Notes under the pieces: model-generated
The model's database searches: none
Seen by the model: only the letters and a program-made list of their open reading frames with translations
What the model was told of the DNA's origin: nothing
Position numbers and translations under genes: made by a program
Source: Lantana camara
Taxonomy: Eukaryota; Streptophyta; Magnoliopsida; Lamiales; Verbenaceae
Length of the DNA: 64,000 bases
Assembly (NCBI GenBank): GCA_037501455.1
Contig: CM074865.1
Location: 36,376,501-36,440,500, forward strand
Direction: 5' to 3'
Shown: positions 341-61,416 of the stretch, piece by piece
Layout: every line of letters begins with the position of its first letter
How positions within the stretch are numbered: the stretch's first letter is position 1

Positions 341-465
341 GACACGGGGGTGTCACCTTCCTTAGCCAAACTGAGCCACGACCGTGGCTCAGTACAGACC
401 TGACCAGAGGGTGTGACACGCCCGTGTCTCACTCTTATGAGTAAATGAGACACGGGGGTGTCACG
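341..465 (-). repeat. Gyp1 palindrome cluster
   Basis: Four inverted repeats lie within 125 bp. They are GACAC-GGGG-GTGTC at 341-354, a perfect 10-bp-arm repeat CTGAGCCACG-AC-CGTGGCTCAG at 371-392, GACACG-CC-CGTGTC at 415-428, and another GACAC-GGGG-GTGTC copy near 449-463. On the minus strand the cluster lies about 900 bp downstream of the donor-like site at 1355. That is the relative place occupied by palindrome clusters in the other gypsy LTRs of the window. Confidence 0.85.
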
Positions 466-3675: not shown

Positions 3676-3895
3676 GGGACACGCCCGTGCCCCCTGGAAG
3701 GGCAAGCCGAGACACCCCCGTGTCTCGGTACAGAAAAACGAACAACAGAAACCTGGAGGTGATACGCCCGTATCACCAAAAAAAGGCCAGTCGAGACACC
3801 CCCGTGTCTCGGTACAAAAAAACGAACAACGAAAACAAAAGGTGACACGCCTGTGTCACCAACAAAAAGCAAACCGAGACACCCCCGTGTCTCGG
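3676..3895 (-). repeat. Gyp2 palindrome cluster
   Basis: At least six near-perfect inverted repeats occur. GAGACACCCCCGTGTCTC is at 3709-3726, 3793-3810 and about 3876-3893. GGTGATACG-CC-CGTATCACC is at 3758-3777 and GGTGACACG-CC-TGTGTCACC at 3841-3860. A decayed member is at 3677-3692. Two palindrome types alternate, separated by short A-rich spacers of 25-45 bp. The cluster lies inside the putative first LTR intron. Confidence 0.9.
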
Positions 3896-4944
3896 TACAG
3901 AAAAACGAAGATTGCTCAAACAGCAAACTCAGCAACCCCAAATAAAACTAAACACTCAAACTCCAACTACCAAGCAAGGAAATGCAATAAATGCTAATAA
4001 TTAAGTTCTAGGAGCATAATATTAACATCAAAACTCAAGAAAACAAGAAAAGAGCAAGAATCAACAATTCTCCCAACATCTACTATTCACAAGTTTGCCA
4101 AATATCACCAATCCACCATGGAAATGAACTTAAGAGCACATAAAAGAGAGAAGAGAGAGTAAAGATGACAACCATGAACTCACCTTTCAAATTTGAGAAG
4201 CTTGGGTGAAGATTTGAGCTCAAAATCAAGAAAATGGACAAAGGGTTTCTTCTTCCTTCTTGCTTCCTTGTGCTGATCGGTTTTGGGAGAGAGAGGGGGA
4301 GATTGGCTCGGTTTCCAGTAGAAAAAAGGGAAGAGAGGGTTCAACTCAAGGTCTAACTCAAGGTTAAGGCTTGGTTAAGGTTTAGTGGGGTCCACAAAGT
4401 CATAGCTAGGTCAAAAGGTGTCTCTCAAGCATAAGGGGCTCGTTACGGGTGAAATTCGAAGGTCTTAACGAGCTTAGAAAAATGTGAGGCTTGTCCTATT
4501 AAACCCAAATCGTCGAAACGAGTTCAACGGAGGTGACGGAATTCGAATCCGAATTCCCGAGCTTAAGGTACGCGTCCCGGAACCCAAGGTGCGCTAAATG
4601 CACTTTAGCCTCCTTTAGGTCCCGTCTCCAAAACGAACCCAAAAAGGTAACTAAAACAAATACCAAAACATAAAACGAGCACATAACCGAGTCCATAAAG
4701 CATATAATTAACACATAGCACGAATTCACAAAAATCAGAATTAAATACGAATCTAGAGCGAGCAAAATACAAAGAGAAGAAAAATTAAACGTTCAAGTTA
4801 AACAAATCCATACCAAAGCAATTAAGTTCAAATAATTTCAATTAATCCACGTTAACAATTAAACATCGCATAATCACTTAAAGTAATAATTAAATAGCGC
4901 ACATAAGAGGTTACCTAAAAAGTCTGATCAGTCGGGATGTTACA

Positions 4945-5172
4945 CATATTGTTTTATAGCTTGATTCATGGATTTAAATTGCTACCAATGTGTTATACGT
5001 GTGTTATGTCATGTTTTCTGGTGTTTTTGTGGTGTATTTTGATTTAAATCGGAGTTGGAGGTGTTCGAGACCTTTCCCTTCGTGTTTTTCACCTTCTGTA
5101 CCCTGTTTTTTGACCCAGGAGTAGCCGAATGGTCGTTCAGTGTTTTCATGAACGACCGTTCATCCATCTAGA
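4945..5172 (+). mobile_element. Gyp3 5' LTR, left fragment
   Basis: This piece aligns closely to 39540-39765 in the 3' LTR of Gyp3, including the run TTGCTACCAATGTGTTAT and the palindrome ATGAACG-AC-CGTTCAT at 5148-5163. On its left it is cut by Gyp2. On its right it joins the Gyp4 LTR directly at about 5172-5177 without a target duplication. Comparison with 39765-41018 implies that about 1.25 kb of Gyp3 LTR is missing at this junction. Confidence 0.85.
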
Positions 5173-5852: not shown

Positions 5853-6114
5853 ATGTATAAATACGTGTACACTTTCGCATAAATACTAAATGTATTTTTA
5901 AAATAAATACGTATTTACGTTTGTATAAATACAGCATGTTTTCTAGTATACGTACCACATGTATTCTTGTATAAATACTGTATGTACCTTGTATAGATAC
6001 TGTATAAATATTGTAGGTATCCCCGTATAAATACTGTATACATACAGTATACATACCGTATACATACCGTACATACTGTATAAATACCTTATACATATAG
6101 TATATATACCGTAT
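5853..6114 (+). repeat. Gyp4 5' LTR palindrome cluster (ATAC/GTAT type)
   Basis: A run of units built on GTATAAATAC, ACTGTATAC and CCGTATAC occurs here. The clearest inverted repeat is ATACTGTAT-AC-ATACAGTAT at 6031-6050. The cluster is roughly 60 bp longer than the matching one in the 3' LTR (33716-33911), so unit number has changed between two LTRs that began identical. It lies within the putative first intron. Confidence 0.8.
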
Positions 6115-15070: not shown

Positions 15071-15320
15071 GTTTTCGTTTCGTGTTTTCGTTCAAAAGCA
15101 AAACCAATCCAAGAAATCCAATAACAGTTTATACAGTTTCAAATCTAAAATAGTTTTCAAAATTAAATTTTGCAAAAACCAATTTTCAGAAACTTTCAGG
15201 AAAAAATACAGTTTCGTAATTCAGGCTTTCTAAAACAATTACAAATACTCAATCGCATCAAGCCTAAGAATTTCTACCAAATTCAGAATAATTGAGACGA
15301 ATCAGAAACACGATTAACGA

Positions 15321-15336
15321 GGTGGCTCTGATACCA
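15321..15336 (-). other. Cop1 primer-binding site
   Basis: On the minus strand TGGTATCAGAGCCACC lies two bases inside the 5' LTR boundary at 15339. It is complementary to the 3' end of plant initiator tRNA-Met, the usual primer for plant LTR elements. Confidence 0.9.
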
Positions 15337-15338
15337 CT

Positions 15339-19501: not shown

Positions 19502-20238
19502 ATAACTGTGACACCCCGACTTTCAGACTATACAGGTATGACGTATGTGCATAATTTATTTTATTTAAATTCTTATTCTTTATTCTTTTAATTCTTATTT
19601 CAAATATTTCTTAAGGATTTGAATGAATTTTATATGATTATGAATGCTATATGTTAAGATTTGATTCGTTGATGCTTGAATTGAATCCGGAATTTTCTGT
19701 TATTTTAGTATGATAGAGACTTACGTGTTATGAACTTGGATATATGCTCGTTACATGTTTTCGAATCTAATTGTTGAGCTTTTGAATTAATTGTTACGTT
19801 CGGAACCTAAAGGAGGTTAAAACGCTTTTAGCGCACCTTGGGTTCCAATATGTGTAATTTGAGCTCGGGAATTCGGATTCGAATTCCGTCACCACCGTGG
19901 AACTCGTTTCGACGATTCGGGTTCGATGGACTAAGCCTTATAACCTTTTAAGCTCATTTGGTAATCCGAAATCCGACCGGAAACTTACCTCGCTCTTATA
20001 TGACTACCTTTCACTTAATTGCACCTTAGTCCCTCAATTCTTGACATATTACCCTCAAGGTTGGCCCCACTTTACACTAAAACTCAGCATATTCATCACT
20101 CCCTCTCTCAATGTCGGTATACACAAGGAAAAAGAGGAAAAGTGCAAAAACTTTGGAGTTCAAGCTCAAAACCCGTCACTATTTACCCTTGGGAGAGATT
20201 GAGCTCTAATCTCCATTTTCTTCCAACATCTTTAAGGG

Positions 20239-22098
20239 GTAAGCTAGTATTTGATATGTACTTGAATATATGGTCATTTTGAGCTATTAATTCCATGCTT
20301 TGGGCTATGTTTGATACACATATGGAACATGACATGAATTTTAAGGGTTTGATGATCACCTTGGTTTCTTGGACTTAAGCTTTAGTTTGAAGTTATATAT
20401 ATGATCTTTTATGACTCTAATATGCTTATATGATCTCCCTTTTCAATATGGTTGAGCATGGAGGAAGTTGCCATTGATGAAATTTGAATTCTTGCATGAG
20501 AATTCTTGATATATATGATAATTTTTGAGCTTTTGGGATGATTGGATGATTGTATGTTAATTAGGGAGTGATTTTCCTTCATTTACATGAGTTTTGTGGC
20601 TTGAGGTTGTTGCTTGTTGTTGCTGCGTGCTCCCCTACTTCCTTGCTCTGTTTTTTCACGCAGAGTTACTGTTGCTGCTGCTATTTTTTTTCGAAGACGA
20701 TAGGCCAACACGGCCGTGTCATCTTTATGCATGTTTTGGACACGGCCGTGTCAGCCTCTCGACTTGGAGCAATTTATTTTTATAAAACCGGACACGGCCG
20801 TGTCCATTTTGAAGTAAAACTCAACACGGCCGTGTCAGCCTCTCGAATTAAGCTCCTGAATTTATTTTAACCGGACACGGCCGTGTCCATTTTGAACTAA
20901 AACCCAACACGGCCGTGTCATTTGAAAATATGGCTGCGACAATTGCTCGTTTTATCGCTTCGTTGCTTTTCTTTGTGTTTTCTTTCTTCGTTTATGACGT
21001 GTATGCAATGTAGCTTGTTATATTACGCATTATGTGCCTTGTTTTGAACTTATGATCTCATTTTCTATGAATTGTGTGAATATGATTTGGTAGGGTTCAT
21101 TTGTCATGGTTATGCATTTCATTTGCCTTAATTGCATTCCTAAGCATTTTCGAGCGTCTAATTGGTACATATTTGAGTCTAAGTCTCGGGTCTTGCGTTC
21201 TTTTGTTTCAGAGCCTCTTCACGAAGTTAAAGAGCCCGAGGTTTAGGTGTTCGGTTGCTTCTTTTGTCCGATTTTCACTCCACTTCCACTTCAAGGTGAG
21301 GGTTAGGATCTTTTCTTGTGGATAAACGACCTATGGCCTTTATGTTATTGATTTCGTATCCCGTATATGGCTATATATGTATTATATGGTTAAATACGAA
21401 TGCTTATGATACGTTTATGATTTTATGAATCCCTTTTCGAATTTATGAAAATGGTATAAGTATGGGCGTATATGAGCTTATGATTTTGAATCCCTTGTAC
21501 GTTTCCTTTATGATTCCGCGAGATGTGCCCTGAAAGATGGGTTATTGGCATGTTTCTTATGAATCCGGGCCCAGGGATTATGGGTAAGGACCCCCGGTAC
21601 GACAAGGGCCGTCGGGTTAAGCCTGTGCACATCCCATTTGAGGTGGTGGCGTGCGACTCTTGGAGGTTGAGAAGGCGCTCTTACCTTGAGCCCTCGGTGA
21701 ATAACCTGGGAAGGCATATCGTGGGTTAGCTACCCCGTATGTATATAGAATCCATATGGGTGGAAAGGGTTTGATTCCCGATCACCAAGGCGTTGAGGAG
21801 TTATGAATTTATGAATTCTTATGTATTTATGATTTGTATGAGGAGTTGAGGAGGTCCGTACTCGCCGGACGTTTATGTTTCGTTTATGCTTTGGTGGTTG
21901 TGAAACGGGTTGGGATTTCCTTTGTATTATATATGTTTTAAAATGATTTGGTATGAAAAACCCTAGCTCGGTTCATGATCGACCCCTTTGACTATTTGTG
22001 ATGCTCTATATGTAGTTATGGTGTGGGTGTGCGTTAGCCCCCCTCACTCAGTCGAGTTTTGACTGACCCCTTCCTTTTAACACTTTAGTTGCAAGTTG
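20239..22098 (+). other. Gyp5 5' LTR candidate splice signals
   Basis: Donor GT at 20239. Acceptor CTTTTGTTTCAG at 21211, then an 84-nt exon-like segment (21212-21295) ending TTCAAG|GTGAGG. Branch-like CTGAC precedes a pyrimidine tract, and the final acceptor site here reads TTGCAAGTTG at about 22090. The 3' LTR has an intact TTGCAG|GTTG. The last acceptor therefore appears mutated in the LTR that would be transcribed. Confidence 0.5.
20708..20918 (+). repeat. Gyp5 5' LTR palindrome cluster (ACACGGCCGTGT)
   Basis: Six copies of the perfect 12-bp palindrome occur at 20708-20719, about 20740, 20792, 20825, 20875 and 20907. Two outer contexts alternate. GGACACGGCCGTGTCC is followed by ATTTTGAA and the other form by AGCCTCTCGA, giving a higher-order repeat of about 82 bp. 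It lies within the putative first intron. The copy in the 3' LTR (28899-29111) has decay in its first unit. Confidence 0.92.
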
Positions 22099-22505
22099 CT
22101 CGAGCTAGGCGGGGAAGTGCGTCGGTCGTGTCGTACTTTTGAGTTTAGGTCGAGTCGGCATATTTACCTGCTGCATTTTAATTACTTTTATGAACGGTTT
22201 TGAATCCTAAATATGTATTCGAAGATTTATGTTAATACTTGACCTATTTTTGGGCTATCAGGCCGTGGTATATGATGTATATGTTAGTATAGAGCTCCTT
22301 TGCGATCCTTATGATATTGCTTCCGCATTCTTATTGTTTGTCTGAGCGCTCTGTTCGTGTTGTAGCCCCGCTTAGCCTAACGTGTGAGTGTAGGTTCCCG
22401 TTCGCTTAGACTTGGGCTCATGTATGGAAATCCATTTCATATGTGGGTTCGGGTTTAAGTGCGGGGGATGTGGTGGCCCACCGTTCTGGGCGCTACATCT
22501 TAAAG

Positions 22506-22517: not shown

Positions 22518-22692
22518 TTTCGGTTGCAAAACCGAAGCTTTTGAGTCGTGTTGAGTTTGTCTAGGTCGTTCGGATTAGGACAATGTGGTTATGTGCATTT
22601 ATGTGTCTCATTCACTTGAATTTCTATGAATTGTGCACATGATCATGGACTAACCGCATGCATGTGTATTGGAATTCTTTGGATGTTATAGT

Positions 22693-27180: not shown

Positions 27181-27994
27181 TTGTGACACCCCGACTTTCA
27201 GACCGTACATGTATGACGTATGTGCGTAATTTATTTTATTTAAATTCTTATTCTTTATTCTTTTAATTCTTATTTCAAATATTTCTTATGGATTTGAATG
27301 ATTTTTATATGATTATGAATGCTATTTGTTAAGATTTGATTCGTTGATACTTGAATTGAATCCGGAATTTTCTGTTGTTTTAGTATGATAGAGAATTACG
27401 TGTTATGACCTTGGATATATGCTCGTTACATGTTTTCGAATCTAATTGTTGAGCTTTTGAATTAATTGTTACGTTCGGAACCTAAAGGAGGTTAAAACGC
27501 TTTTAGCGTACCTTGGGTTCCAATATGTGTAATTTGAGCTCGGGAATTCGGATTCGAATTCCATCACCACCGTGGAACTCGTTTCGACGATTCGGGTTCG
27601 ATGGACTAAGCCTTATAACCTTTTAAGCTCATTTGGTAATCCGAAATCCGACCGGAAACTTACCTCGCTCTTATATGACTACCTTTCACTTAATTGCACC
27701 TTAGTCCCTCAATTCTTGACATATTACCCTCAAGCTTGGCCCCACTTTACACTAAAACTCAGCATATTCATCTCTCCCTCTCTCAATGTCGGTATACACA
27801 AGGAAAAAGAGGAAAAGTGCAGAAACTTTGGAGTTCAAGCTCAAAACCCATCACTATTCACCCTTGGGAGAGATTGAGCTCTAATCTCCATTTTCTTCCA
27901 ACATCTTTAAGGGGTAAGCTAGTATTAGATATGTACTTGAATATATGGTCATTTTGAGCTATTAATTCCATGCTTTGGGCTATGTTTGATACAC

Positions 27995-28898: not shown

Positions 28899-29111
28899 AA
28901 CAAGGTCGTGTCATCTTTATGCATGTTTTGGACACGACCGTGTCAGCCTCTCGACTTGGATCAATTTATTTTTATAAAACCGGACACGGCCGTGTCCATT
29001 TTGAAGTAAAACTCAACACGGCCGTGTCAGCCTCTCGAATTAAGCTCCTGAATTTATTTTAACCGGACACGGCCGTGTCCATTTTGAACTAAAACCCAAC
29101 ACGGCCGTGTC
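28899..29111 (+). repeat. Gyp5 3' LTR palindrome cluster
   Basis: Six units matching those of the 5' LTR. The first (AACAAGGTCGTGTC) and second (GACACGACCGTGTC) have lost perfect symmetry and the other four are intact. Confidence 0.9.
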
Positions 29112-33221: not shown

Positions 33222-35447
33222 GTATGTTTTTTTTTTTTTATTTATTTTATGTTATAACTAGTTTATTTTATGTTTTAAATTATGTTTTAATTCATGTTTT
33301 AATTTATTTATTAATTATGCTAGGTTTAGGCTTTAATATGTGTTTTATTTTGTGCATGAATTATGTGATTTAATTTATGTTTTAAATATTCATGAATTTA
33401 TGAATTATGTCTCTTATAGTATAGTTTATTATGAAAGTGTTACGTAATTTAATTTTGTTACAAATTAATTATGTGACAATTATTCTAGCATGTTATATGT
33501 TACACTTTAATTATTTTATGATCATACTTAGGTAATTTAATTTATTACATGATTTAATTTAATGTTACATGTTATTTATTGTTACATGATTAAAGTATAA
33601 CCTATAGTTTTAAATGTTACATGTTTAATTAATTGTTACATAATTATAATTGACCAATTGATATATGTTATGGTATACATGTATAATATACGTATACGTA
33701 TTTGATTCCTTTATGTATAAATACGTGTACACTTTAGCATGAATACTAAATGTATTTTTAAAATAAATACGTATGTACGTTTGTATAAATACCGTATGCA
33801 TTCTAGTATAAGTACCGCATGTATTCTTGTATAAATACTGTATGTACCCTGTATAGATACTGTATAAATATGGTAGGTATCCCCGTATAAATACCGTATA
33901 TATACCGTATACTTGAATAGTGACCTTTGACCCTTGACCTTGACCTTTGACCCTTGACCTTTGAGTTCGACCTTGGTCAAGAATTTTGACTTTTAACCTA
34001 AATGATCGTTTCGAAGAGACGAATTCAACGGGTCAAAGCCTTTTTCGAAAATTCTCAAAAACAGGGGATGAAAGTTGGTTTCAAAGTTCACATTCCTTTT
34101 CTAAATGAGATTGTTTTATGACTCTAAGAATATATCCTTAAGTTCTTGACACGAGCTTTCAATTGAGACTATTGAAAAAGAGTATTCCTTGTTCAAGCTT
34201 TTTGCTTTCTCGCCAACCTTGTGTTTCATTCTTAGTTAAATGATTCTTCTGCATTAAATGGTATTACACTCCTATGTACTGCATTACATGAATCCTATTA
34301 TGCCTTCATGCTTGATGGTTATTGAATAATTATCATGAAATATCACCACATGATATGAGATACTTTGATGATGTTTCGTCCTGTACATATGATATCGTTA
34401 TGTGCTATTGAATGACTTGAGGTCGTCCTTACTTGTTTATGTGACAATATGGTTTGTGGATAGAAACTTAATCATTCACCACTCACAGGTGAAGTCCGGA
34501 TTTACTGTGGCTCTGATATTATTGCATAATACTGTTTCTGTATGTGAGGTTTAAACTATTTCAACTGGAACCGTGAATATTCTTATGTATTCAAATGATT
34601 TCAAAATCAACTCATTCGAGTTCAAAGATTCTTATCTTTCAAGTTAAACGTTTTCCTATTTTGGGGCAAGACTTCAAGTTTAAAGTTAATGATCTCTGAT
34701 ATATATCCTGTACACTGCTACACATCCTTGAATAAAGGTTCAGTCTCCTGAACTCTGTGTGCTTATGCACTTTTGTTATTCTGAATGCAAGCTTTGGAAA
34801 TTTTGTTATGTTGGGCCCTGGCGGTATGGTTAAGTAGTAGACCGGGAGGCGTGCGCCAATGGCTACTATGACACTGGCCGCCGTACTGACCTTGGTGATG
34901 GTTTAATCGGAGGTTGGTTACTCCACATCGAAGGTCGGGAGAGGTGGTAAATTCCTCCCGTTTTGTTTACGTCACCGCGGGGTAGCTCCCTGGGCGCGAC
35001 AATAAGTGGAGAAGGGGTGGTGCATGGGTATATGGGTGTTAGGGTCCTAATGGATCTCGATACCAACTTTGTAAATGTTGTTTGTGGAGTAAAGGATGGA
35101 TATGGCCTAGCTTGCGGGCAAACTTTGGTTTTAAAGCCTGGTTCATATCTTTGGAAAATATCCCATACCCTGTTCCCCGTTTATAAAGTATATATGAACC
35201 AGAACCTCTAACGTGTGCGCATGGGTGTGCTTGCTTGAAAGTCCTGTTTCAAAGTAATCTTTTGAAGTACGATTCTAAAATAATGTGTTAAAGTAAAGTT
35301 CTGAAATTCATTTTTAAAGTACAATTTCGAAGTAAATCCTTTTCCGAAAACCTAAAGTTCTGAGTACTTATTTTGTTTCAAAAGTCATGCCTCACTTAGT
35401 CCCTTTGACTAATACCTCCACCCTGTTTTCTAACCTTATGGTTTCAG
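33222..35447 (+). other. Gyp4 3' LTR candidate splice signals
   Basis: Donor TTGAAAG|GTATGT (33222). Acceptor CTCACAG (34488) and 55-nt segment 34489-34543. Final acceptor GGTTTCAG (35447) preceded by CTAAC. The arrangement is the same as in the 5' LTR. Confidence 0.5.
33716..33911 (+). repeat. Gyp4 3' LTR palindrome cluster
   Basis: GTATAAATAC/ACCGTATAC units matching the 5' LTR cluster, but about 60 bp shorter at its right end. Confidence 0.8.
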
Positions 35448-38737: not shown

Positions 38738-39271
38738 TGTAACACCCCGACTTTTCGGCAATCCAGGTATGGCATTACGAGAGAGTTTAATTCCGTATTT
38801 TCTAAATTATATGCCCTCGCATGCCTTATGTGGTAACGGGAATTCATTTTAGTTTAATACGCTTTAGAATTTAATTAAAATGTATTTGGACTCAATTGTC
38901 CAAAATGTGGAGGTTAGGGACCTAATTATAATTAGGGTATTTTGATCATTCGTGACTAACTTGAGCTCGGGGATTCGGATTGGAATTCCAACTTCACCAT
39001 TGGATTCGCTTCTACGATTCGGGTCCAATGGAACAAGCCTCACCTTATTCTGAAGCCGTTTGATCACCCTACCATTTTAAAATCCGACTCATTCCGACCC
39101 GTTTCTCCTTAAACCGACCCGTTTTTAACCCTTAAGGGCTGAACCCTCTTCTTTCTTTCCCCATTTGAAATGATGTAGCAGCCAAGGAGAAGAAGAAGAA
39201 GGGCTTCCCCCACCCCTCAACCTTTGAGCTCAAGTTCCGACTTCATTTGTCCCCCCGATCAACGATCTGAG

Positions 39272-41611
39272 GTAAGCATTGAATTCCTCTCTTCGAGTAC
39301 ATCGTTTCTTCCCGATTGAATCTTGTTTATCTTGCTTGCTTTCATGATCTTGGTGAAGATGATGAATAGTAGCATTCTTGTGAAAATTGTTCCCTTGCTT
39401 CCATTCTTGAATTATTTGCTCCAAGAATTACTTATATTGTTCCCGTGAGTTCCCTTATCGTATATTTATAGGAAATTTTATTGTGGGTTGTGTATTATAT
39501 GAAACTCCATTGTTGGAGCTTAAATGAGCTTTAATGTCATGTTGTTTTATAGCTTGATACATGGATTTAAATTGCTACCAATGTGTTATACGTGTGTTAT
39601 ATCATGTTTTGTGGTGTTTTTGTGGTGTATTTTGATTGGAATCAGAGTTAGAGGTGTTCGGGACCTTTCTCTTCGCGTTTTGCAGCTTCCATACCCTATT
39701 TTTTGACCCAGGAGTGGCCGAATAGCCATTTAGTGTTTTCATAAACGACCGTTCATCCATCCAGAAGCCCCCCCGGTCCTTCGAACGGTCGTTCCTGGTT
39801 TTAGGCATGAAATCCGAACGGACGTTCACTATCCAAACGAACTCCGAATGACCTCAATTTTTTATACAATAAACATTTTTAAGTTTAGAACATTCTCCAA
39901 TTGTAATTATCTCAAAATTCATTTTGGTTTGGTAGATATAATCATTTTAAAATTATGTTGCCACTTCACCAGAATTCTGCAATTGTCCAATTTCAAACCT
40001 ATGCCATTTTCGTGTTTCTTTGAACCACAATTTGAGCCATATACCGTTGGAAATATCTATGTGTCTAGTTTTATTTCCAAGAAATAAAACTCAATTATCA
40101 TTTCTCAAACTCAAGTTATACCCATTTTCCTACAGCTTGTCCGTTTCGGAAAAACTGTCACGTTTGGCCTAATTTCACTCGGAACCCCTTTTAGTGTTTT
40201 TATTCTGTTTTTCTCATATGTTTCCATCTCCAAAATTGTTCCTAACTTATTTTATCATGTGTATGTGTATGTATTCAGTCTTATATGCATTTTATGTTGC
40301 TTTAGGAATGTGATATGTGTTTATAAATGAATAAATGCCACCATACGCCTTCCGTTTATCTTTGATGCATTAATTGTGCACATGAACTTGTTCTTAACAT
40401 TTTATATGATATTAAATGAGTATGTTGAGTGTGGTATGACTTCTATTGCATGAATTTGATATGATTATGAGCTTTGCTTACATGTTTGCATCTCTTAAGC
40501 GCTTATGCATACGTCGTGCATCTATGTGGTTCATTCTCGAGTCTAAGTCTTGTGCTTTATCTTCAGTTTGATCAGGTGCACCCGGGGTGGTGTTTTGTCG
40601 GCCAAGTTGATTCTGGGGTGGATCATTCATCGTGTTTTGGCTTCTTCAGTGTAAGGTGAGTTTAGGATATAGTTAACCATAATGAAATGTGCCCGTTTTT
40701 GAATGCATGTGATTTATAAGAATTATGTATATGTAAATATGTGCGGGGTATGTATTTTGATGGTTTTATCATATGCTTGAAAGTATGAACTCTATGTATG
40801 AGCCTACGTATGCTTAGTCTTGATTTTGATATGATTTTGAGGTAAGTAAGTGTGTGGTATGTATGTACGATATGATAAGTACGATACGCATGAGTTATGT
40901 CTGTTTGTCTGTCTGTCTGTAGCGGGATTTGAACTTTGAATTTGAATTTCAATTTGACTTTGAACTTGGGCCCTGAAGGTTTGTGCTAAGGAGCCTCGGG
41001 ACGGTGTCAGGACGTCGGGTCTACTCCTGAGTACGGCCTCCATCTGTCTGAAAGAATGTACCGGAACCCACCAGGAGGTTTGGTTGGAGTACTGAGGGTT
41101 GGAGAAGCATTGAGCACTCCCCTCACCTGCTTGGATGGTTAGGGGTAGGATCAACCCTTCCATCACCGGAGAAGAGGTAGGTTTGTTTGATTTTGATTTC
41201 GTCTAAATATGAATATGAACTGAAGAGTTGGTTGGCGTTTGAGCTCATACCCACCGAGCTATCTATCCGTTCTGTCATAAGTTTGTGAAACGGGGGTAGA
41301 TTCATAAATTAAGATAAAAGTTTGAATATTTTAACCTAATAAAACGTGATATGTCTGCTAAGTTTGCTTTGATATGAACGTATGTTTTAGATATATGTAT
41401 GAACTAAGTTGCGTTTTGTTCTATTTTGACAAGCCACCCTATATATATATTATCACGGGCAAATGTTTTGGCGTGCAAAAACTAATCCCGGATCCCGAAC
41501 ATCTACTTTTGAACATGTTGTGCTCTTACGTATATGTAGGTGTGTGTGGGTAGCCCCTCACTCAGTCTTTGGACTAACCCCTCCCCTCCCCATTTTTTTT
41601 TTAGTTTGCAG
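39272..41611 (+). other. Gyp3 3' LTR candidate splice signals
   Basis: Donor TGAG|GTAAGC (39272). Acceptor TTTATCTTCAG (40566), then 89-nt exon-like segment 40567-40655 ending GTGTAAG|GTGAG. Branch-like CTAAC and a strong pyrimidine tract lead to TTTGCAG (41609-41611). TCTAAGTCT lies before the first acceptor, as in Gyp5 and Gyp7. Confidence 0.5.
39714..39840 (+). repeat. Gyp3 3' LTR palindrome cluster (GAACG..CGTTC)
   Basis: Inverted repeats GAACG-GT-CGTTC (39783-39794), GAACG-GA-CGTTC (39816-39827) and AACG-AC-CGTT (about 39744-39753), plus a decayed one near 39718. The 5' copy has a better ATGAACG-AC-CGTTCAT at 5148-5163. Confidence 0.85.
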
Positions 41612-41837
41612 GTTCGCTTTGGAGTTCGAGCTAGGCAGAGTGAGTCTGACCTTGGAGTTGAGATTTCGTTTAAGTTCGGACTTTGCATTTGCATTTTGAA
41701 TTTGATTTCATTTATGTATTATGATAGTATGTACGAATATTTATAAGCATGAATTATTTGAATTATGTTATGGATTTCGGGACAGGCTTCTAGGGATAGT
41801 TTGAAATCGTTTAAATTTATGATTTATGTTTTGATTT

Positions 41838-42812
41838 GATATTCGGGATTAGGGATCATGCTAGTTGAACCTGTCACATGCTTATTTTGTTTTGGATTTT
41901 TATATGGCATGTTTTACGCTTTCGCATTTATGTTGGATGTTTTTGTGTAGTTCAGGGTTTATGTTCTACCTAGCCTAGGTGTGTGTCTGTCTGTCTCCTA
42001 TTCGCCACTGTTTGGTTCATGTACGAACTTCTATTTGTATGTGGACAGGACCTTGGTACGGGGGACGTGGTGACCCACCGTGCGGGGTGCTACAGGGTAC
42101 ATTCGTTCGAGTTCTTCTTTTGGGGTTCACCGGTTTTATTTGTGAAGAAGAAAGATGGAACCTTAAGAATGTGCATCGATTATAGAGAGTTGAATTGGAT
42201 GACGGTCAAGAATAAATATCCCCTCCCATATATCGAGGAGTTCTTCGATATATTTCAGGGTTCAAAGGTTTATTCTAAGCTTGAGCTATGTCAGGGATAT
42301 TATCAATTGCGAATCCGAGAAGAAGATATTCGGGATTAGGGATCATGCTAGTTGAACCTTTCACATGCTTATTTTGTTTTGGATTTTTGTATGACATGTT
42401 TTATGCTTTTGCATTTATGTTGGACGTTTTTACGTAGTTCAGGGTCTATGTTCTACCTAGCCTAGGTGTGTGTCTGTCTGTCTCCCGTTCGCCAGTGTTT
42501 GGTTCATGTACGGACTTTCATTTTGTATATGGACGGGACCTTGGTGCGGGGGATATGGTGACCCACCGTGTGGGGTGCTACAGGGTACATTCGTCCGAGT
42601 TCTTCTCTTGGGGTGCACCGCTTTTATTTTTGTAGAAGAATGATGGAACCTTAAGAATGTGCATCGATTATAGAGAACTAAATTGGATTACGGTCAAGAA
42701 TAAATATCCCCTCCCATATATCGAGGAGTTCTTCGATATATTTCAGGGTTCAAAGGTCTATTCTAAGCTTGGGCTATGTCAGGGATATTATCAATTGCGA
42801 ATCCGAGAAGAA
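41838..42812 (+). repeat. 488-bp tandem duplication across the Gyp3 LTR / Gyp6 pol boundary
   Basis: Unit 1 (about 41838-42325) and unit 2 (about 42325-42812) each hold the last 257 bp of the Gyp3 LTR followed by about 230 bp of Gyp6 reverse transcriptase. GATAT occurs at each breakpoint, a 5-bp microhomology. The two units have since diverged by several bases. In unit 1 the RT stretch is cut short at GATAT-TCGGG; in unit 2 it continues into the rest of pol. Confidence 0.88.
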
Positions 42813-44907: not shown

Positions 44908-45301
44908 TGTGACACCCCGTCTTCTCGGCAATTCAGGTACGACGTCACGGGAGAGTTTAATTTTGTATTTTCGTAATTTATGTGTGATTTGTATATCTTA
45001 TGTGGCACTTTGTGTTTTATTTTACTTATATGGGCATTAGAATTCGCTAAATGTTCTTGGGCTCAATCGCTCAATATTTGCCGAATTAGGGACCTAATTT
45101 TATTTGGGGTGTTTTAGCCTTCGTGGCTATTTTGAGCTCGGGATTCGAATTCGAATTCTAACCTTGTCATTGGGTTCGTTTCGATGATTCGGATTCAATG
45201 AATTAACCTTTTATTTCCTAAGCCATTTGATAGCCCAACCGTTTTAAAATCCGATCCGAATGGACCGGATACTGTTTGACCCTACCCGTTTACCCGAACG
45301 G

Positions 45302-45323
45302 TATCAGCCCTTAAAGGCTGATA
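45302..45323 (+). other. Gyp7 exon-1 hairpin
   Basis: TATCAGCC-CTTAAA-GGCTGATA is a perfect 8-bp stem about 120 bp before the donor. In the 3' LTR (51487-51508) the stem is unchanged while the loop reads TTTACA, a small hint that pairing matters. Confidence 0.6.
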
Positions 45324-45445
45324 TTATCCTCTCTCTCCATTTGATCGATCAAAGTAAGGGAGAAGAAAAGAGAAGGAAGCCCCTTTGGCCATTCCAAGCT
45401 TTGGGTCGAGCTCGCCTCATCCGACCTTCCAACCGAAGAACAAAG

Positions 45446-47718
45446 GTAACAATTGTATTCCTCTCGTTACGTGCTTCAATTCTACGTGCATTTCGTGGTA
45501 TGATTCCGTGTCTAAGTGGCTATTTGGGAGTGATGATGAATAGTGTAGATTTCGTGTTTTGGGTGTTCGGACTCTTTTCTTAGTCCAATTTATGGTCTAA
45601 TGTGATATATATATGTGATATACCTTGATTTTGAGTGTTTTTGGTGTATTGTATGATTGGTATGTGATTTGGGGTGGTTTGGGAACCACCCCCATCGACC
45701 CCTAGCTTTCTTGCTCTTTTTTTTCGGAGAAGACGACCCAACACGGCCGTGTCAGCCCCTAGTTCGTTTCCGACACGGCCGTGTCAGGCTCTCGAGTTTG
45801 AATTTTTTTAACCCGACACGGCCGTGTCAGTTTTCAGGCCAATATTGACACGGCCGTACTGACCTCGTTTGAACTCCGATTGGCCTCATTTTTTAACCCA
45901 CGGAAACCTCTTGAAGTCTAGAATATCCTTCAATTGGAATCACTTCATTATCTTTTGTCATTTGTGAGATATAATTGTTTGAAATTTTTGTCGCCACTTC
46001 GCTTAAATTCTGCATTTATCCAACTTCGAACTTACGCCATTTTCGCCTCGCTTTGAACCACAATTCGAGCCACCTACCATTTGAAACATCTATGTGTCTA
46101 GTTTCATTCCCAAGAAACAAAACTTAATTTTCATTTCTCAAACTCAAGTTATGATCGTTTTCCTACAGCTTATCCATTTCGGAAAACTTCCAACTTTTGC
46201 CCGTTTTGCTCGGAACCGTTTCTTATGTTTTTCTTCGGCTTTTCTTGCACTGTTTCACCTCCGAACCCATTCCTAACTTGTTTTATATTATTTTATGTGT
46301 ATGTATTTGTTCTTATATGCATTTTATGTCGCTTTAGTAATGTGCTTTGTGATCATACATGAATAAGTGCCACCATTTGCCTTTCGTTTACCTTTGTATA
46401 CATTGATAGTGCACTTGAGCATGCTTTAATGTGGTTTAAGCACATGATAAGCTATGAAATGCATTCGCTTGTATGAAATAAGTTTGAAAATGAATTTTGT
46501 TTAGGTAGTTGAATCTCTTATGTGCCTATGCATACGCCGTGCGTCTATGTGGTTCTCCTTTGGGTCTAAGTCCTGCTTTTTGTCTTCAGTTTGTCCAGGT
46601 GCACCCGGGGTGGTGTTTCGTGAGCCGTTTTGATTCCGGGGTGGATCACTTGTGTTGTTCTTGGCTTCCTTTGGTATAAGGTGAGGTTAGGTTATAGTTA
46701 AACCCTATGAAATGTGTTCGTTTTCTATGCATGCGAGCTATGACCATAAGTATAAGTAAATATGTGTGAAATATGTAATGTGACAAGTCTTTCCAAGTAC
46801 GATACGCTTTGTACAAGCCTATGTACGTTTGTTTTGGGTATGTATGATTTACTACGGTTGCAACATCAAACTATACTTCAAACCGTGTGCCTCTTACGAG
46901 CTGAGAGCTACGAGCTATGGATATGCTGTGGATTTGACACGGAGAGGTATGTAAAGTATAGTTGTTGCAAGGTAAGATTGTTATGTCAGTTTTTTTTGTT
47001 AATTTTGTTATGTAGGGGGTTATGTTATGGTATGCTCCCTATGATTTGTTCGGTATGATTGGGCCCCGGTGTTGTGGGTAAGGGGGACCCGGGTCGGCCA
47101 TGGGGTCGCCGGTTTATGACCCCGTGCACATCTCCACAGTTTGATAGGAATAACCCTGAACCCTCCAGGAGGTTTGGTAGGGGAATGGGAACCTGAGGGT
47201 TTGAGTGTTCGCGCTCCCCTCATATGATTTGGATGGTTTGGGTCGCGCAACCCTTCCATCACCGGAGAAGGAGGTATGTATGATACGTTTGCTATGTGTT
47301 GTTTTGGATTTGTTATGTATGTTTCGTTTGAGGAGCCCAGGATGGGATTAGGTGCTCGTACCCGCCGAGTATGTATGTATGCTTTGGTAAAGTTCGTGAA
47401 ACGGGGATAGACTTTTAAATTAAAATAAAATATGCATCTTTTTAAATATGTAAGCTAAGATATGATTTGATTCAATATGATTTGCTAGGAATTAATCATC
47501 CGGTTTTATATGAAATCCTTTAAGCTTTGGTTTGCTTTGTTTCTTTTAGAATCCCTATATATATGTATCACGGGTTAAACTTTGGTATGCAAAAACTATC
47601 CCTGAGTTCACGCACTATGTGATTGTTATGTGCTTTGCTCTTATACATATAGCGTGTGTGGGTAGCCCCTCACTCAGTCTGTGTGACTGACCCCTCCCCC
47701 CTTTTGTTTTAGATGCAG
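45446..47718 (+). other. Gyp7 5' LTR candidate splice signals
   Basis: Donor ACAAAG|GTAACA (45446). Acceptor TTTTTGTCTTCAG (46589), 91-nt exon-like segment 46590-46680 ending GTATAAG|GTGAGG. Branch-like CTGAC, pyrimidine tract and TTTTAGATGCAG (47718), then GTTCAGATTTTGG. TCTAAGTCC precedes the first acceptor. Confidence 0.5.
45741..45861 (+). repeat. Gyp7 5' LTR palindrome cluster (ACACGGCCGTGT)
   Basis: ACACGGCCGTGT at 45741-45752, GACACGGCCGTGTC at 45772-45785 and 45815-45828, and a half-decayed unit near 45847. Same core as Gyp5, although the LTRs around it are otherwise well diverged. Confidence 0.9.
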
Positions 47719-48214
47719 GTTCAGATTTTGGAGTTCGAGCTAGGCGGTTTTGAGTCGGGTCTGTCGAGTCCGTGTCTGTCTATTTGTTTCATTAAGTGCT
47801 TAGCTCGTTATTGTGTAAGAAGTTATGTATACGTATATGATATACTTTATGCAGGTTTGCACTTATAATTTGGAATGTATGAATTACGGGACAGGTTAGG
47901 ACAGGTTCGCGAAATTAGTTGAACCCGTTTGTATTTTAATTTATGTTATATTCGGGATTAGGGATCTATGTTAGTTGAACCCGTCAACTGTTGCTTTTAA
48001 TTTAAGTTGTTTGTGTGATTGCTTCCGCATACGCTTTCGTCTTTGTTGGTTGGTTTAATTTGCAGGGTCTACGTCCCGCCTAGCTTAGGTGTGTGTCTGT
48101 CTGTCTCCCGTTCGCCTTTTCTTGGTTCATGTACGGGTTTTCCATCTCGTATGTGGATTAGGCTTAGGTGCGGGGGATGTGGTGACCCACCGTGCGGGGT
48201 GCTATATCCTAAAG

Positions 48215-51630: not shown

Positions 51631-53902
51631 GTAACAATTGTATTCCTCTCGTTAGGTGCTTCAATTCTACGTGCATTTCGTGGTATGATTCCGTGTCTAA
51701 GTGGCTATTTGCGAGTGATGATGAATAGTGTAGATTTCGTGTTTTGGGTGTTCGGACTCTTTTCTTAGTCCAATTTATGGTCTAATGTAATATATATATG
51801 TGATATACCTTGATTTTGAGTGTTTTTGGTGTATTGTATGATTGGTATGTGATTTGGGGTGGTTTGGGAACCACCCCCATCGACCCCTTGCTTTCCTGCT
51901 CTTTTTTTTCGGAGAAGACGACCCAACACGGCCGTGTCAGCCCCTAGTTCATTTCCGACACGGCCGTGTCAGGCTCTCGAGTTTGAATTTTTTTAACCCG
52001 ACACGGCCATGTCAGTTTTCAGGCCAATATTGACAACGCCGTGCGGACCTCGTTTGAACTCCGATTGGCCTGATTTTTGAACCCACGGAAACCTCTTGAA
52101 GTCTAGAATATCCTTCAATTGGAATAACCTCATTATCGTTTGTCATTTGTGAGATATAATCGTTTGAAATTTGTGTCGCCACTTCGCTTAAATTCTGCAT
52201 TCGTCCAACTTCGAACTTACGCCATTTTCGCCTCGCTTTGAACCACAATTCGAGCCACCTACCATTTGAAACATCTATGTGTCTAGTTTCATTCCCAAGA
52301 AACAAAACTTAATTCTCATTTCTCAAACTCAAGTTATGATCGTTTTCCTACAGCTTATCCATTTCGGAAAACTTCCAACTTTTGCCCGTTCTGCTCGGAA
52401 CCGTTTCTTATGTTTTTCTTCGGCTTTTCTTGCACTTTTTCACCTCCGAACCCATTCCTAACTTGTTTTATATTGTGTTATGTGTATGTATTTGTTCTTA
52501 TATGCATTTTATGTCGCTTTAGTAATGTGCTTTGTGATCATACATGAATAAGTGCCACCATTTGCCTTTCGTTTACCTTTGTATGCATTGATAGTGCACT
52601 TGAGCATGCTTTATTGTGTTCTAAGCATAAGATAAGCTATGAAATGCATTCCCTTGTATGAAATAAGTTTGAATATGAATTTTTTTTAGGTAGTTGAATC
52701 TCTTATGTGCCTATGTATACGTCGTGCGTCTAGGTGGTTCTTCTTTGGGGCTAAGTCCTACTTTTTGTCTTCAGTTTGTCCAGGTGCACCCGGGGTGGTG
52801 TTTCGTGAGCCGTTTTGATTCCAGGGTGGATCACTTGTGTTGTTCTTGGCTTCCTTTGGTATAAGGTGAGGTTAGGTTATAGTTAAACCCTATGAAATGT
52901 GTTCGTTTTCTATGCATGCGAGCTATGACCATAAGTATAAGTAAATATGTGTGAAATATGTAATGTGACAAGTCTTTCCAAGTACGATACGCTATGTACA
53001 AGCCTATGTACGCTTGTTTTGGGTATGTATGATTTACTACGGTTGCAACATCAAACTATACTTCAAACCGTGTGCCTCTTACGAGCCGAGAGCTACGAGC
53101 TATGGATATGATGTGGATTTGACAAGGAGAGGTATGTAAAGTATAGTTGTTGCAAGGTAAGATTGTTATGTCAGTTTGTTTTGTTAATTTTGTTATGTAG
53201 CGGGTTATGTTATGGTATGCTCCCTATGATTTGTTCGATATGATTGGGCCCCGGAGTTGTGGGTAAGGGGGACCCGGGTCGGCCATGGGGTCGCCGGTTT
53301 ATGACCCCGTGCACATCTCCACAGTTTGATAGGAATAACCTTGAACCCTCCAGGAGGTTTGGTAGGGGGATGGGAACCTGAGGGTTTGAGTGTTCGCGCT
53401 CCCCTCATATGATTTGGATGGTTTAGGTCGCGCAACCCTTCCATCACCGGAGAATGAGGTATGTATGATACGTTTGCTATGTGTTGTTTTGGATTTGTTA
53501 TGTATGTTTCGTTTGAGGAGCCCAGGATGGGATTAGGTGCTCGTACCCGCCGAGTATGTATGTATGCTTTGGTAAAGTTCGTGAAACTGGGATAGACTTT
53601 TAAATTAAAATAAAATATGTATCTTTTTAAATATGTAAGCTAAGATATGATTTGATTCAATATGATTTGCTAGGAATTAATCATCCGGTTTTATATGAAA
53701 TCCTTTAAGCTTTGGTTTGCTTTGTTTCTTTTAGAATCCCTATATATATGTATCACGGGTTAAACTTTGGTATGCAAAAACTATCCCTGAGTTCACGCAC
53801 TATGTGATTGTTATGTGCTTTGCTCTTATACATATAGCGTGTGTGGGTAGCCCCTCACTCAGTCTGTGTGACTGAGCCCTCTCCCCTTTGTTTTAGATGC
53901 AG
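51631..53902 (+). other. Gyp7 3' LTR candidate splice signals
   Basis: Same donor, 91-nt mini-exon (52775-52865) and last acceptor as the 5' LTR, all splice dinucleotides unchanged. Confidence 0.5.
51926..52045 (+). repeat. Gyp7 3' LTR palindrome cluster
   Basis: Four units at the same spacing as in the 5' LTR. The first two are perfect, the third and fourth carry substitutions. Confidence 0.88.
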
Positions 53903-55595: not shown

Positions 55596-55925
55596 TGCTA
55601 TCGAGGGCCGGGAACCTTTTCAGTTCATTTTGATCCCGATCGGGATCCTCTTGTAGATTACTGCCTAAAACAGCAATCTCGGTCGGGTTGATTTTGGTCC
55701 AGGCCGGGATTGTAAAATATTCTCTTTTGAATTATTGGTCTCAACCGGGACCTTTTTCAGTTCAAAACCAATCCCGGCCGGGATGGCAGTACAGGCGGGT
55801 TTTTGGACAAGGTGTCCCGACCGGGATTGTTTTCTGTCCAGGCCGGGATGGCCATGCAGACATAGCTGCTGGAGCTATGTCCCAGCCGGGATCCATTTTA
55901 CACTAAAACTCATCCTGATCGGGCT
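55596..55925 (+). repeat. Gyp8 palindrome cluster (ATCCCG..CGGGAT)
   Basis: GATCCCGATCGGGATC (55632-55647) and ATCCCGGCCGGGAT (55771-55784) are perfect. At least six further half or degenerate units (GGCCGGGAT, CCCGACCGGGAT, CAGCCGGGATCC, ATCCTGATCGGG) lie between 55608 and 55923. Located in the putative first intron. Confidence 0.88.
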
Positions 55926-59336: not shown

Positions 59337-61416
59337 CTGCAAACTCAAAGAAATAAAGGAAAAAAAGACAACGAGCAGGGGTCACTCCTAAAGACTGGTG
59401 TGGGGGCTAACACACTCACACATACATATACATAAAGCAGAGCATATTCAAAGTCATAAAAGCTCATGAACCCTAGCGTGGTTTTTGCAATCTAAAACAT
59501 TTTAGCCCGTGATACTATATATAGAAAAAAGTTAAGGTCGAAGGCCAAAATCACCAAATTTTTAATAATGAGGAATCCACTCCGGTTTCACAAACCAAGT
59601 TCAGAATCTAAATCATACAACTCGGCGAGTACGAGTTTCAGACCAACTTAACTGCATTCATAATCAAAATCATTGTCGAATTCAAACGAAAACAAAGTCA
59701 AACAAACATACCTCTTCTCCGGGAGATGGAAGGGTCGTACGCACCCCTAACCATCTGTTTTAAATGTAAGGGTCGTGAGTGTCATGATGCTCATGCCCGA
59801 GGATTCCATCCCCCACTAAATCTCCTGGTGGGTTCCGGTTGATCCTTTAAGTGGAGACCATACTCGGGGAGTGACCCGACGGCCCAACACCGTCCCGGGG
59901 CTCCTTTGCACAAATCTCCCGGGCCCAGTTCCAATTTTCAAAGTTCAAAATTCAAAAGATCTAAATTTTCTAAATCAGACTTAACTTTCAAAGTCATAAA
60001 TTCCTAGTTCAAAACACACACACCAACCCTTTTTCAAAACAAACAAATGAAAATATAACTTATTTATATATAAAAGCGTTTTTCAAATGTTTCATAACCA
60101 ACGGGCCAAGTCCCACAAAATACAAATCAAGCACGTATCTAGATATATGTATAAATATGTAGGTCGCATGAGGGCTTAAAACCCATTTAGGGTTGTAGGT
60201 CATAATGACTAAAAGAAATAAAATTTCACCTTATCGACCAAACTGAACGGGACAAACCGGAACACACATAACGAACCACCTCGTTACCCTCGTAACGAAC
60301 CTCTAAACTAAAACAAGGGATAAATACATACTTAGACTCAAAATGAAAAAATTAGACGCTTGGCAAATGCATATGAATGCAAATAATGCGTACGAGATGC
60401 AACAAGGTGACACTTAACTTATATAAATTCATATCAATTCATAAATTACATATTTTACGTCAAACGAATTCATAAACTTCATATAACGAACATAAAATAT
60501 CATATAACATGCTATTAAGGCATATATATCAAAGAAGAAGCAAAGAGATATCATACGAGGCGAATAAACAAAACATTTAGCCATGCATGCACATAGAGAA
60601 TATCTTATCATATATCATGTATAAAAGCATCAAAATTACATTATAAATTCATAACGAAACATGTAACACATAATATAGCAAGCTATCAATGCATAAGAGA
60701 CATAGAAGAAGCAAGAAAGTCATGTAATACGTAAAGGAAATGACAAATAACATGTATGGCAGCAGCAGGTCGAAACTCCCCCTAAAAAGGGTCGTGGCCG
60801 CGACCTAAACTCAGCACAAAAGGGGTCGTGGCCGCTACCACAACCACCACCAGCTCCAGCAGCGACCACAAGTCAAAACAAGGCCTAAAATCAGCCACGG
60901 CCACAACCAAGAAAGGCCTTGGCACGGTCGCGGCCGCGACTGTGCGTTGTAGTCCGAGAAACATAACAGCAACCCTGTTTTCTCCTCCAAAACAAACAGC
61001 AGCAACAAGGGTACGAGGTAAGGTAACAAAGGCAGCAAAGAGGTAATAAAAACACATAAAATCTAACACGAAACAAGCACAACAACAACAGTAAATTCAG
61101 ACGCAGCAACAAGAATGCAGAAAGTTCAAGTTGAAACTCATTTTCAAAATTTCATGAAGTGCATCCATGGTAGATCTAGATGCAGTTATTTTCCACGAAA
61201 TTTGAGCTGAAATTCATGACAATGAATTCATCTAGATCATAAAAATAGCTTCAAATGAAGAAATGCTTCAAGGAATCATAATAATTAACAAAAATTTTAC
61301 ATAAACCTTTACTATTCACGTTTTTTTTATCAAAACATGCTCAAATGATACCCAAAATCAAAAAATCTAGGCTTGAAAGATTCATAAGAGAGTGGGGAAC
61401 AATAATATATTCATAC
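59337..61416 (-). other. Gyp9 candidate splice signals
   Basis: Minus strand: donor CGGAAG|GTATG (61417/61416). Acceptor CCCTTGTTTTAG (60308), 78-nt exon-like segment 60307-60230 ending CGATAAG|GTGAAA. Final acceptor TTTGAGTTTGCAG (59337) with a CCAGTC...GAGTGACCCC block upstream. GAGTCTAAG precedes the mini-exon acceptor. Confidence 0.5.
60789..60940 (-). repeat. Gyp9 palindrome cluster (GTCGYGGCCRCGAC)
   Basis: GTCGCGGCCGCGAC (60927-60940) is perfect. GGTCGTGGCCGCGACC (60790-60805) has one mismatch pair. Further decayed units occur at 60824-60838 and 60896-60907. Same relative place as the other clusters. Confidence 0.85.

What the first reader, a model, noticed from the sequence alone, without database searches (positions are those of the whole stretch)
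20708..20918. Every gypsy LTR family carries a cluster of short palindromes at the same relative place, but each family uses its own palindrome
Seen directly: clusters at 341-465, 3676-3895, 5853-6114 with 33716-33911, 20708-20918 with 28899-29111, 39714-39840, 45741-45861 with 51926-52045, 55596-55925 and 60789-60940. Cores are unrelated in sequence, apart from Gyp5 and Gyp7 which share ACACGGCCGTGT, yet all are self-complementary. Flanking LTR sequence is strongly diverged. Keeping symmetry while sequence turns over suggests selection for self-pairing or for dimeric protein binding. I do not know of a described feature matching this.
Basis: seen in the sequence. Interest (0 to 1): 0.9.

Follow-up and report, generated by a model that had tools for sequence, protein, structure and literature searches.

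The report
Paired-palindrome arrays in plant gypsy LTRs
Most of the plant gypsy retrotransposon LTRs in this window carry an array of short palindromes that share a CG-two bases-CG centre but differ between families in the outer bases, which looks like docking sites for a paired DNA-binding protein and resembles palindrome arrays already described in another retrotransposon group.

Summary
The palindrome clusters are real in seven of the eight gypsy LTR families seen here. The eighth (E3, 5853-6114 and 33716-33911) is an AT-rich periodic tract and stays inconclusive. A scan of all 64 kb for three copies of one palindrome returns only AT-rich tracts and arrays of six families; G9 is too decayed to reach it.

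Four families (not two) share ACACGnnCGTGT; the others use GAACGnnCGTTC, TCCCGnnCGGGA and TCGCGnnCGCGA. With a 2-bp gap all share CG-NN-CG, a free centre and symmetric outer bases.

In the sister families E6 and E7 the arrays are orthologous by flanking sequence, yet both arms differ in step. Centres lie 21-23, 32-34, 40-43 or 49-52 bp apart, one gap of 102 bp aside. The arrays probably lie in U3 (inferred).

Best reading: arrays of half-site pairs for a dimeric double-strand DNA-binding protein whose specificity drifts. RNA pairing fits less well.

The closest known thing is the palindromic CGG-CCG repeated motif of Sirevirus (Ty1/copia) LTRs, PMC2829016: so a new variant of a known kind, in Ty3/gypsy. 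No binding protein is identified; all evidence comes from one window.

The parts
20707..20919 (+). E5 5' LTR array: 6 copies of ACACGGCCGTGT (GGACACGGCCGTGTCC at best), centre spacings 32,52,32,51,32
28899..29111 (+). E5 3' LTR copy of the array, same spacings, first copy decayed
45740..45859 (+). E7 5' LTR array: 4 copies of ACACGGCCGTGT (last decayed), spacings 32,43,32
51925..52044 (+). E7 3' LTR array, last copy decayed beyond 2 mismatches
39720..39827 (+). E6 LTR array: GAACGnnCGTTC, 3 clear copies and one decayed, spacings 40,33; orthologous to the E7 array by flank
5127..5161 (+). fragment of a second E6-like LTR with two better kept palindromes, spacing 23
341..465 (-). G1 LTR array: ACACGnnCGTGT type, 4 copies incl. 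ACTGAGCCACG[GT]CGTGGCTCAGT, spacings 34,40,34
   Evidence: LTR extent at this point inferred
3676..3896 (-). G2 LTR array: 6 copies of ACACGnnCGTGT type with arms up to 10 bp, spacings 34,49,34,50,33
55600..55925 (+). G8 LTR array: TCCCGnnCGGGA, 9 copies with up to 2 mismatches (a tenth decayed upstream), spacings 43,21,41,33,43,22,43,33
   Evidence: LTR start not found
60789..60940 (-). G9 LTR array: TCGCGnnCGCGA, 3 copies with up to 2 mismatches, spacings 102,34
   Evidence: missed
5853..6114 (+). E3 AT-rich periodic tract (GTAT/ATAC, period about 11/22); membership inconclusive
33716..33911 (+). second copy of the E3 tract; inverted repeats not above shuffles
19507..22498 (+). E5 5' LTR (3' LTR 27182-30691), Ty3/gypsy; PBS at 22506; gag-protease-RT-RNaseH ORF 22654-25659
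44908..48206 (+). E7 5' LTR (3' LTR 51093-54391)
38738..42096 (+). E6 LTR
41440..41447 (+). possible TATA box of the E6 LTR (E7: 47556), 114 and 110 bp upstream of CCCCTCACTCAGTC; would put the array in U3
   Evidence: 2 of 5 LTRs with that landmark; role inferred

Best explanation
Each array is a set of docking sites, probably in the U3 region of a gypsy LTR, for a symmetric (homodimeric) protein that binds double-stranded DNA. Each subunit reads a half-site of the form NNNCG on its own strand, the two half-sites are held 2 bp apart, and several dimers sit along the array at regular intervals. The most likely outcome is transcriptional control of the element (enhancer, or relief from silencing) by a host transcription factor. 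Shown: the arrays; the CG-NN-CG core; the symmetric difference of the outer bases between families while the central 2 bp are not symmetric; the spacing classes; array homology between E6 and E7 by flank. Inferred: that the arrays lie in U3, that a protein binds, that it is a dimer, that several related proteins or one drifting specificity explain the family differences, and that copies within an array are kept alike by duplication or conversion.
For: With gap 2 and one mismatch the best palindromes have ACACG, GAACG, TCCCG and TCGCG half-sites, all ending in CG (again in the 64-kb scan for all but TCGCG). 58 of 72 half-sites have CG next to the centre, 22 of 36 copies on both sides. The three pair positions outside CG are complementary in 0.94, 0.94 and 0.86 of 36 copies against 0.50, 0.71 and 0.39 when right halves are dealt out over all copies, 0 of 2000 each; the central pair is at its expectation (0.53 and 0.53). 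At a site placed by flank, not by palindrome, E6 has GAACG..CGTTC where E7a has ACACG..CGTGT; the landmark GAACTCCGA starts 17 bp from the last centre in both. The 28 spacings counted fall into 21-23, 32-34, 40-43 and 49-52 (G9's 102 left out; repeats in E5b and E7b not counted). After collapsing to 15 values the in-phase statistic at 10.5 bp is reached by 0.4% of uniform draws. In the array RNA fold no palindrome of E5a, E6 or E7a forms its own stem.
Against: No protein is identified, and no expression, binding or methylation data exist here. Copies were chosen by likeness to a palindrome, so one search is partly circular. Within families the permutation gives p 0.008 jointly, but no core column is significant alone. 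Gap 2 was chosen after seeing six settings; with gap 0 the best words of G2 and G9 are others (TCGGTACCGA, GGTCGCGACC). The best-fitting spacing period is 9.35 bp, not 10.5, and arrays share ancestry, so phasing p-values are too good. Arms reach 10-11 bp in G1 and G2, longer than a usual dimer site. Own stems form in 2 of 4 palindromes of G1, 4 of 6 of G2, 1 of 10 of G8 and 1 of 3 of G9. The RNA of the E5 array folds far better than shuffles (z -9.5) and so does G2 (z -4.6), as any palindrome array would. The TATA box that places the arrays in U3 was found in only 2 of the 5 LTRs with the landmark. Only one window and seven families were examined.
Confidence: 0.55

Rival explanations
1. The palindromes act in RNA: stem-loops or intermolecular pairing in the element's transcript (packaging, dimerisation, small-RNA source).
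For: Array RNAs fold better than 200 shuffles (E5 z -9.5; G2 z -4.6). G2 forms a row of hairpins, arms 8-10 bp; G1 forms 2 of 4. LTR sequence is part of the genomic RNA wherever U3 ends.
Against: In E5a, E6 and E7a none of the palindromes forms its own stem in the array fold, in G8 1 of 10 and in G9 1 of 3; 24-nt hairpins of E6 are 0 to -5.4 kcal/mol. Of 52 mismatched arm cells 23 are A-C and 12 G-T in LTR sense, so no excess of wobble pairs (counts sequences, not events). CG beside a 2-nt centre is not needed for a stem.
Confidence: 0.15
2. Mutational origin: palindromes are made and kept symmetric by template switching of reverse transcriptase or by conversion between arms, then multiplied by tandem duplication, without selection.
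For: Duplicated 83-bp units in G2 and E5. One template switch could change both arms at once, giving the E6/E7 pattern.
Against: Does not explain why four different half-sites all end in CG, why the central 2 bp are not symmetric, why spacings keep to four classes, or why one search finds no such array in another GC-balanced part of the 64 kb.
Confidence: 0.15
3. CG-dense islands kept for chromatin reasons (methyl-CG readers or protection from methylation); the palindromes are a by-product.
For: Arrays are richer in G+C than the rest of each LTR in 7 of 7 families and higher in CpG o/e in 5 of 7 (G8 barely), with G1 equal and G9 lower. Sirevirus RM clusters define CpG islands (PMC2829016).
Against: CG density alone needs neither symmetric outer bases nor spacing classes; CpG o/e in the G1, G8 and G9 arrays is only 0.68-0.86.
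Confidence: 0.1
4. Chance or composition.
For: Inverted repeats of the E3 tract are explained by its composition; E6 and G9 do not pass that test either (201 and 51 of 1000).
Against: for the other families.
Confidence: 0.02

Closest known systems
Palindromic repeated motifs (RM) of Sirevirus LTRs (Ty1/copia), PMC2829016
   Same: Family-specific palindromes in the LTR, 3-14 copies per 3' LTR in its Table 3, 12 of 13 with a common CGG-CCG core, diverged flanks, upstream of the TATA box, mostly in the upper half of the LTR; authors suggest binding of different nuclear factors.
   Different: Here the elements are Ty3/gypsy; the core is CG-NN-CG and is CGGCCG in only 12 of 36 copies (6 of 6 in E5a, 4 of 4 in E7a, 1 of 9 in G8, 1 of 3 in G9, none in G1, G2, E6); centres in spacing classes; centres 0.8-1.8 kb from the LTR start (starts of G1 and G8 uncertain); palindrome difference at orthologous sites of two sister families.
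Target motif arrays of VANC anti-silencing proteins in VANDAL transposons, PMC5735166
   Same: Short motifs in non-coding arrays of a transposon, differing between families, spread by tandem repeat formation, units evolving together.
   Different: The VANC motifs given in the passages seen are not palindromic, and those of VANC21 lie in one orientation; VANDALs are DNA transposons that encode the binding protein; no such protein was met here.
Palindromic structures in the cis region of maize Sirevirus LTRs (Bousios and colleagues, Genome Research 2016; recalled, not held)
   Same: LTR palindromes linked to host silencing, as recalled.
   Different: Ty1/copia, maize; not read here.
Dyad-symmetric activator boxes in plant LTRs such as Tnt1 box I (named in PMC2829016, passage)
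   Same: Symmetric cis element in an LTR.
   Different: Not compared by sequence here.

Membership tests
Sirevirus palindromic RM | lies in a Sirevirus (Ty1/copia) element | tested here: not met
   E5 ORF carries gypsy gag, RVP_2 protease, RT and RNase H; integrase zinc-binding and Tf2-1-like SH3 domains lie in ORFs that follow. Matching pol follows the E6 LTR and matching gag the E7 LTR. G1, G2, G8 and G9 are assigned by LTR likeness only
Sirevirus palindromic RM | repeated palindrome in the LTR | tested here: met
Sirevirus palindromic RM | CGG-CCG core | tested here: inconclusive
   CGGCCG in 12 of 36 copies; CG on both sides of the centre in 22 of 36
Sirevirus palindromic RM | at least 8 copies per element | tested here: inconclusive
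   3-9 copies with up to 2 mismatches per whole array here; the paper's count includes other parts of the element
Sirevirus palindromic RM | clusters define CpG islands | tested here: inconclusive
   array CpG o/e above the rest of the LTR in 5 of 7; islands not called with the paper's program
Sirevirus palindromic RM | upstream of the TATA box | tested here: inconclusive
   E6 and E7: a TATATATA lies about 1.6-1.7 kb downstream of the last palindrome; the other three LTRs with the landmark show no exact match at that place
VANC target array | cognate anti-silencing protein encoded by the element | not tested
   only gag-pol domains were met in the gypsy ORFs that were scanned; no search for a further protein was made
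VANC target array | non-palindromic motif, one orientation | tested here: not met
   motifs here are palindromic; paper passages
Tekay chromovirus | integrase chromodomain | tested here: inconclusive

The most novel reading that the evidence does not exclude
A rapidly drifting dimeric DNA-binding system (host or element-encoded, of the VANC or anti-silencing kind) recognises CG-NN-CG palindrome arrays whose outer bases act as a family password. Sister gypsy families switch password by coordinated change of both arms in all sites, and the same system underlies the CGG-CCG palindromes of Ty1/copia Sireviruses, so two superfamilies converge on or share one protein family.
Probability: 0.12. Interest if true: 0.85.

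Novelty: new variant of a known kind. Interest (0 to 1): 0.55.

Why it matters
If the arrays bind one protein family with drifting half-sites, plant LTRs offer a natural series of specificity switches with orthologous pairs (E7 and E6). That makes the question of who reads LTR palindromes, left open when the Sirevirus motifs were described in 2010, directly testable by one-hybrid or DAP assays. It also gives a motif (NNNCG-NN-CGNNN, regular spacing) with which to search plant LTRs for regulatory arrays.

Tried and rejected
Rejected: target-site palindromes (PMC6911290, abstract, outline and passages) concern insertion sites, not LTR arrays. A bZIP G-box was rejected because the ACGT core is interrupted by 2 bp. 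NAC, ARF, E2F and other plant factors were considered from memory; none that I recall fits all four half-sites, and no motif database was available.

Led nowhere: relatives of the RT/RNase H part of the E5 frame in viral contigs (one pattern match, none confirmed); paired ACACGGCCGTGT in viral contigs and genome contigs (6 bacterial loci, none matching the LTR profile at E 1); an E5 array reading frame in the protein database (3 candidates, none scored); a made-up peptide probe (one hit with E 1.7 among 94 candidates, P0052, read, no context). Likeness of arrays with palindromes masked (21 family pairs): 0 of 1000 shuffles for E5-E7 and E6-E7, where the match lies in the 40-bp flank, and for G8-G9 (a 12-base word); E5-G8, which share a spacer by eye, 39 of 1000; the other 17 pairs 68 of 1000 or more. 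Paper searches listed no title or abstract start on such arrays in Ty3/gypsy LTRs; this library lacks most subscription journals, and I opened only four papers (PMC6911290, PMC5735166, PMC2829016, PMC10794571).

Full report
What is there. The window is packed with LTR retrotransposons and is plant DNA by its best named protein relatives (Striga, Paspalum and others, where only the 7996 candidates sharing most words were scored). Self-comparison, primer binding sites and a profile made from three LTRs place the clusters in one homologous group of gypsy LTRs: E5 19507-22498 / 27182-30691, E6 38738-42096 (second copy in fragments 4945-5183 and 35888-36683), E7 44908-48206 / 51093-54391, G8 ending at 57325, and on the minus strand G1 (about 2100 to the window edge), G2 (4944 to about 2138), G9 (62173-58902) and the end piece G10 (63958-63153). 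For G8 and G1 the matched parts stop about 420 and 600 bp short of the array, so their arrays are placed in the LTR by continuity; the likeness of the E3 LTR to the group is weak and AT-rich. E5 carries gag, protease, RT and RNase H in one open frame, with integrase domains in frames that follow.

Is it more than chance. Scored as perfect inverted repeats against 1000 dinucleotide shuffles, G1, G2, E5a, E5b, E7a, E7b and G8 stand out (0 to 5 of 1000 shuffles reach the value). G9 is weak (51); E6 (201) and E3 (161 and 539) do not stand out. E6 and G9 look like decayed arrays: when repetition of one palindromic 5+NN+5 word with one mismatch is scored, all 10 non-E3 gypsy intervals exceed all 200 shuffles; E3a does too, E3b does not (12), nor does a copia control (13). 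That setting was the best of six and picked afterwards; in the others the worst counts are 0-5 of 200 for the whole arrays of G1, G2, E5, E6, E7, G8 and G9, but 130 for the short E6 fragment. Two scans do not use chosen places. One search scores 1278 windows by palindrome excess; its 45 listed windows are led by the copia LTR, G2, a TA microsatellite, G1, E5 and E7, with G8 last and E6, G9 and E3 absent. One search asks for three copies of one 5+NN+5 palindrome within 150 bp and returns 16 stretches: eight are the arrays of G1, G2, E5a, E5b, E6, E7a, E7b and G8, and eight are AT-rich, two of them E3; G9 is missed. All eight array half-sites end in CG.

Anatomy. With gap 2 the best half-sites are ACACG in G1, G2, E5 and E7, GAACG in E6, TCCCG in G8 and TCGCG in G9, always CG, then two free bases, then CG. 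With gap 0 the best words of G2 and G9 are different ones, so the frame rests partly on this choice. The centre is GC in 17, GG in 7 and others in 12 of 36 copies, and its two bases pair no more than expected. The three pair positions outside CG are complementary in 94, 94 and 86 percent of copies against 50, 71 and 39 percent when right halves are reassigned over all copies. That test partly restates how copies were chosen (E5b, E7b, one further E6-fragment site and two decayed sites were left out), and within families it is weak (joint p 0.008, no core column alone). The cleaner evidence is E6 against E7, sister families in the LTR trees. Their arrays share the downstream landmark GAACTCCGA, which starts exactly 17 bp from the last centre in both, so these sites are orthologous by flank. 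At the next-to-last site (spacing 33 against 32) both arms read GAACG..CGTTC in E6 and ACACG..CGTGT in E7a (CATGT in E7b); at the last site the E7 copies are decayed, and only the left arm of E7a still reads ACACG.

Spacing. Centre distances are 34,40,34 in G1; 34,49,34,50,33 in G2; 32,52,32,51,32 in E5; 40,33 and, in the fragment, 23 in E6; 32,43,32 in E7; 43,21,41,33,43,22,43,33 in G8; 34 and 102 in G9. Leaving out the 102 and the repeats in E5b and E7b, 28 values fall into four classes about 9-11 bp apart. Collapsed to 15 values the in-phase statistic at 10.5 bp has p 0.004 against uniform spacings. The best period is 9.35 bp (maximum over 8-14 bp p 0.003), and shared ancestry inflates all of this. 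I treat it as supportive only.

Place. The landmark CCCCTCACTCAGTC is identical in E5, E6, E7, G8 and G10, 5 of the 9 LTR pieces searched, and a TATATATA lies 114 and 110 bp upstream of it in E6 and E7; E5, G8 and G10 have no exact match at that place (E5 has a TTATATATG there by eye). If that is the TATA box, U3 makes up most of the LTR, and the arrays end 0.95-1.8 kb upstream of the landmark in the four families where both are seen (coordinates). The claim 'same relative place' holds as an interval between the GGAATTCGG block and the AAGGTGAG block in G2, E5, E6 and E7; in the other three families one or both blocks were not found.

How it works. The favoured model is a dimeric DNA-binding protein reading NNNCG half-sites 2 bp apart, several dimers per array, acting on transcription or silencing of the element. 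RNA pairing is less likely: in E5a, E6 and E7a no palindrome folds on itself in the array (G1 2 of 4, G2 4 of 6, G8 1 of 10, G9 1 of 3), arm mismatches are A-C 23 and G-T 12 of 52, and a stem does not need CG at its top. G2 does fold into a row of hairpins, so RNA is not excluded there. A purely mutational origin explains paired arm changes but not the shared CG, the free centre or the spacing.

What is known. PMC2829016 (section 9 read whole, other passages by search) describes, in Sireviruses, a Ty1/copia genus, 13 elements with palindromic repeated motifs, in the LTR upstream of the TATA box, all but one with a CGG-CCG signature, and suggests that small changes may let them meet different nuclear factors. 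That is the same kind of thing in another superfamily. The present case differs in the core (CGGCCG in only 12 of 36 copies), in the spacing classes, and in the difference at orthologous sites. VANC target arrays (PMC5735166, passages) are the nearest case with a known binding protein. My ten paper searches listed no report for Ty3/gypsy, within an open-licence library.

Limits. One window, seven families, no expression or binding data; the genome search did not complete.

Noticed in passing
8554-8613 and the copy about 16072-16131 (copia element 7820-17276, minus strand): The copia LTR has the strongest palindrome excess of the window: tandem GTGACACGTGTCAC (a G-box by recall) directly upstream of a TATATATA tract.
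   Followed up: partly
19868-19887, 27543-27562, 1722-1741, 4538-4557: GGAATTCGGATTCGAATTCC, a 20-bp interrupted palindrome, is identical in E5, G1 and G2 at LTR position about 361-387 and recognisable in E6 and E7: a sequence-conserved palindrome in contrast to the arrays.
   Followed up: partly
21212-21300 (E5), about 40560-40660 (E6), about 46590-46690 (E7): An exon-like block in the LTR, with a CAG before and AAG|GTGAG after it in three families (AAGGTGAGG also in G2), downstream of the arrays; could mean a spliced LTR transcript.
   Followed up: no
22040, 41554, 47666, 56869, 63669 (minus): CCCCTCACTCAGTC is identical in five diverged LTRs, perhaps a core promoter or R-region element.
   Followed up: no
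14700-15100: Island of 71-77% G+C in a 39% G+C window, in the leader of the copia element just inside its 5' LTR.
   Followed up: no
41838-42817: 488-bp tandem duplication spanning a joint where the E6 LTR runs straight into pol sequence: a rearranged element.
   Followed up: no
27995-28504: About 500-bp insert in the E5 3' LTR whose second part is a near palindrome (28189-28504, 80% self-complementary), MITE-like.
   Followed up: no
L002, L005 (Daejeonella sp.), L006 (Verrucomicrobia): Bacterial repeats with the same ACACGGCCGTGT word at the centre of longer palindromes; no match to the LTR profile.
   Followed up: partly
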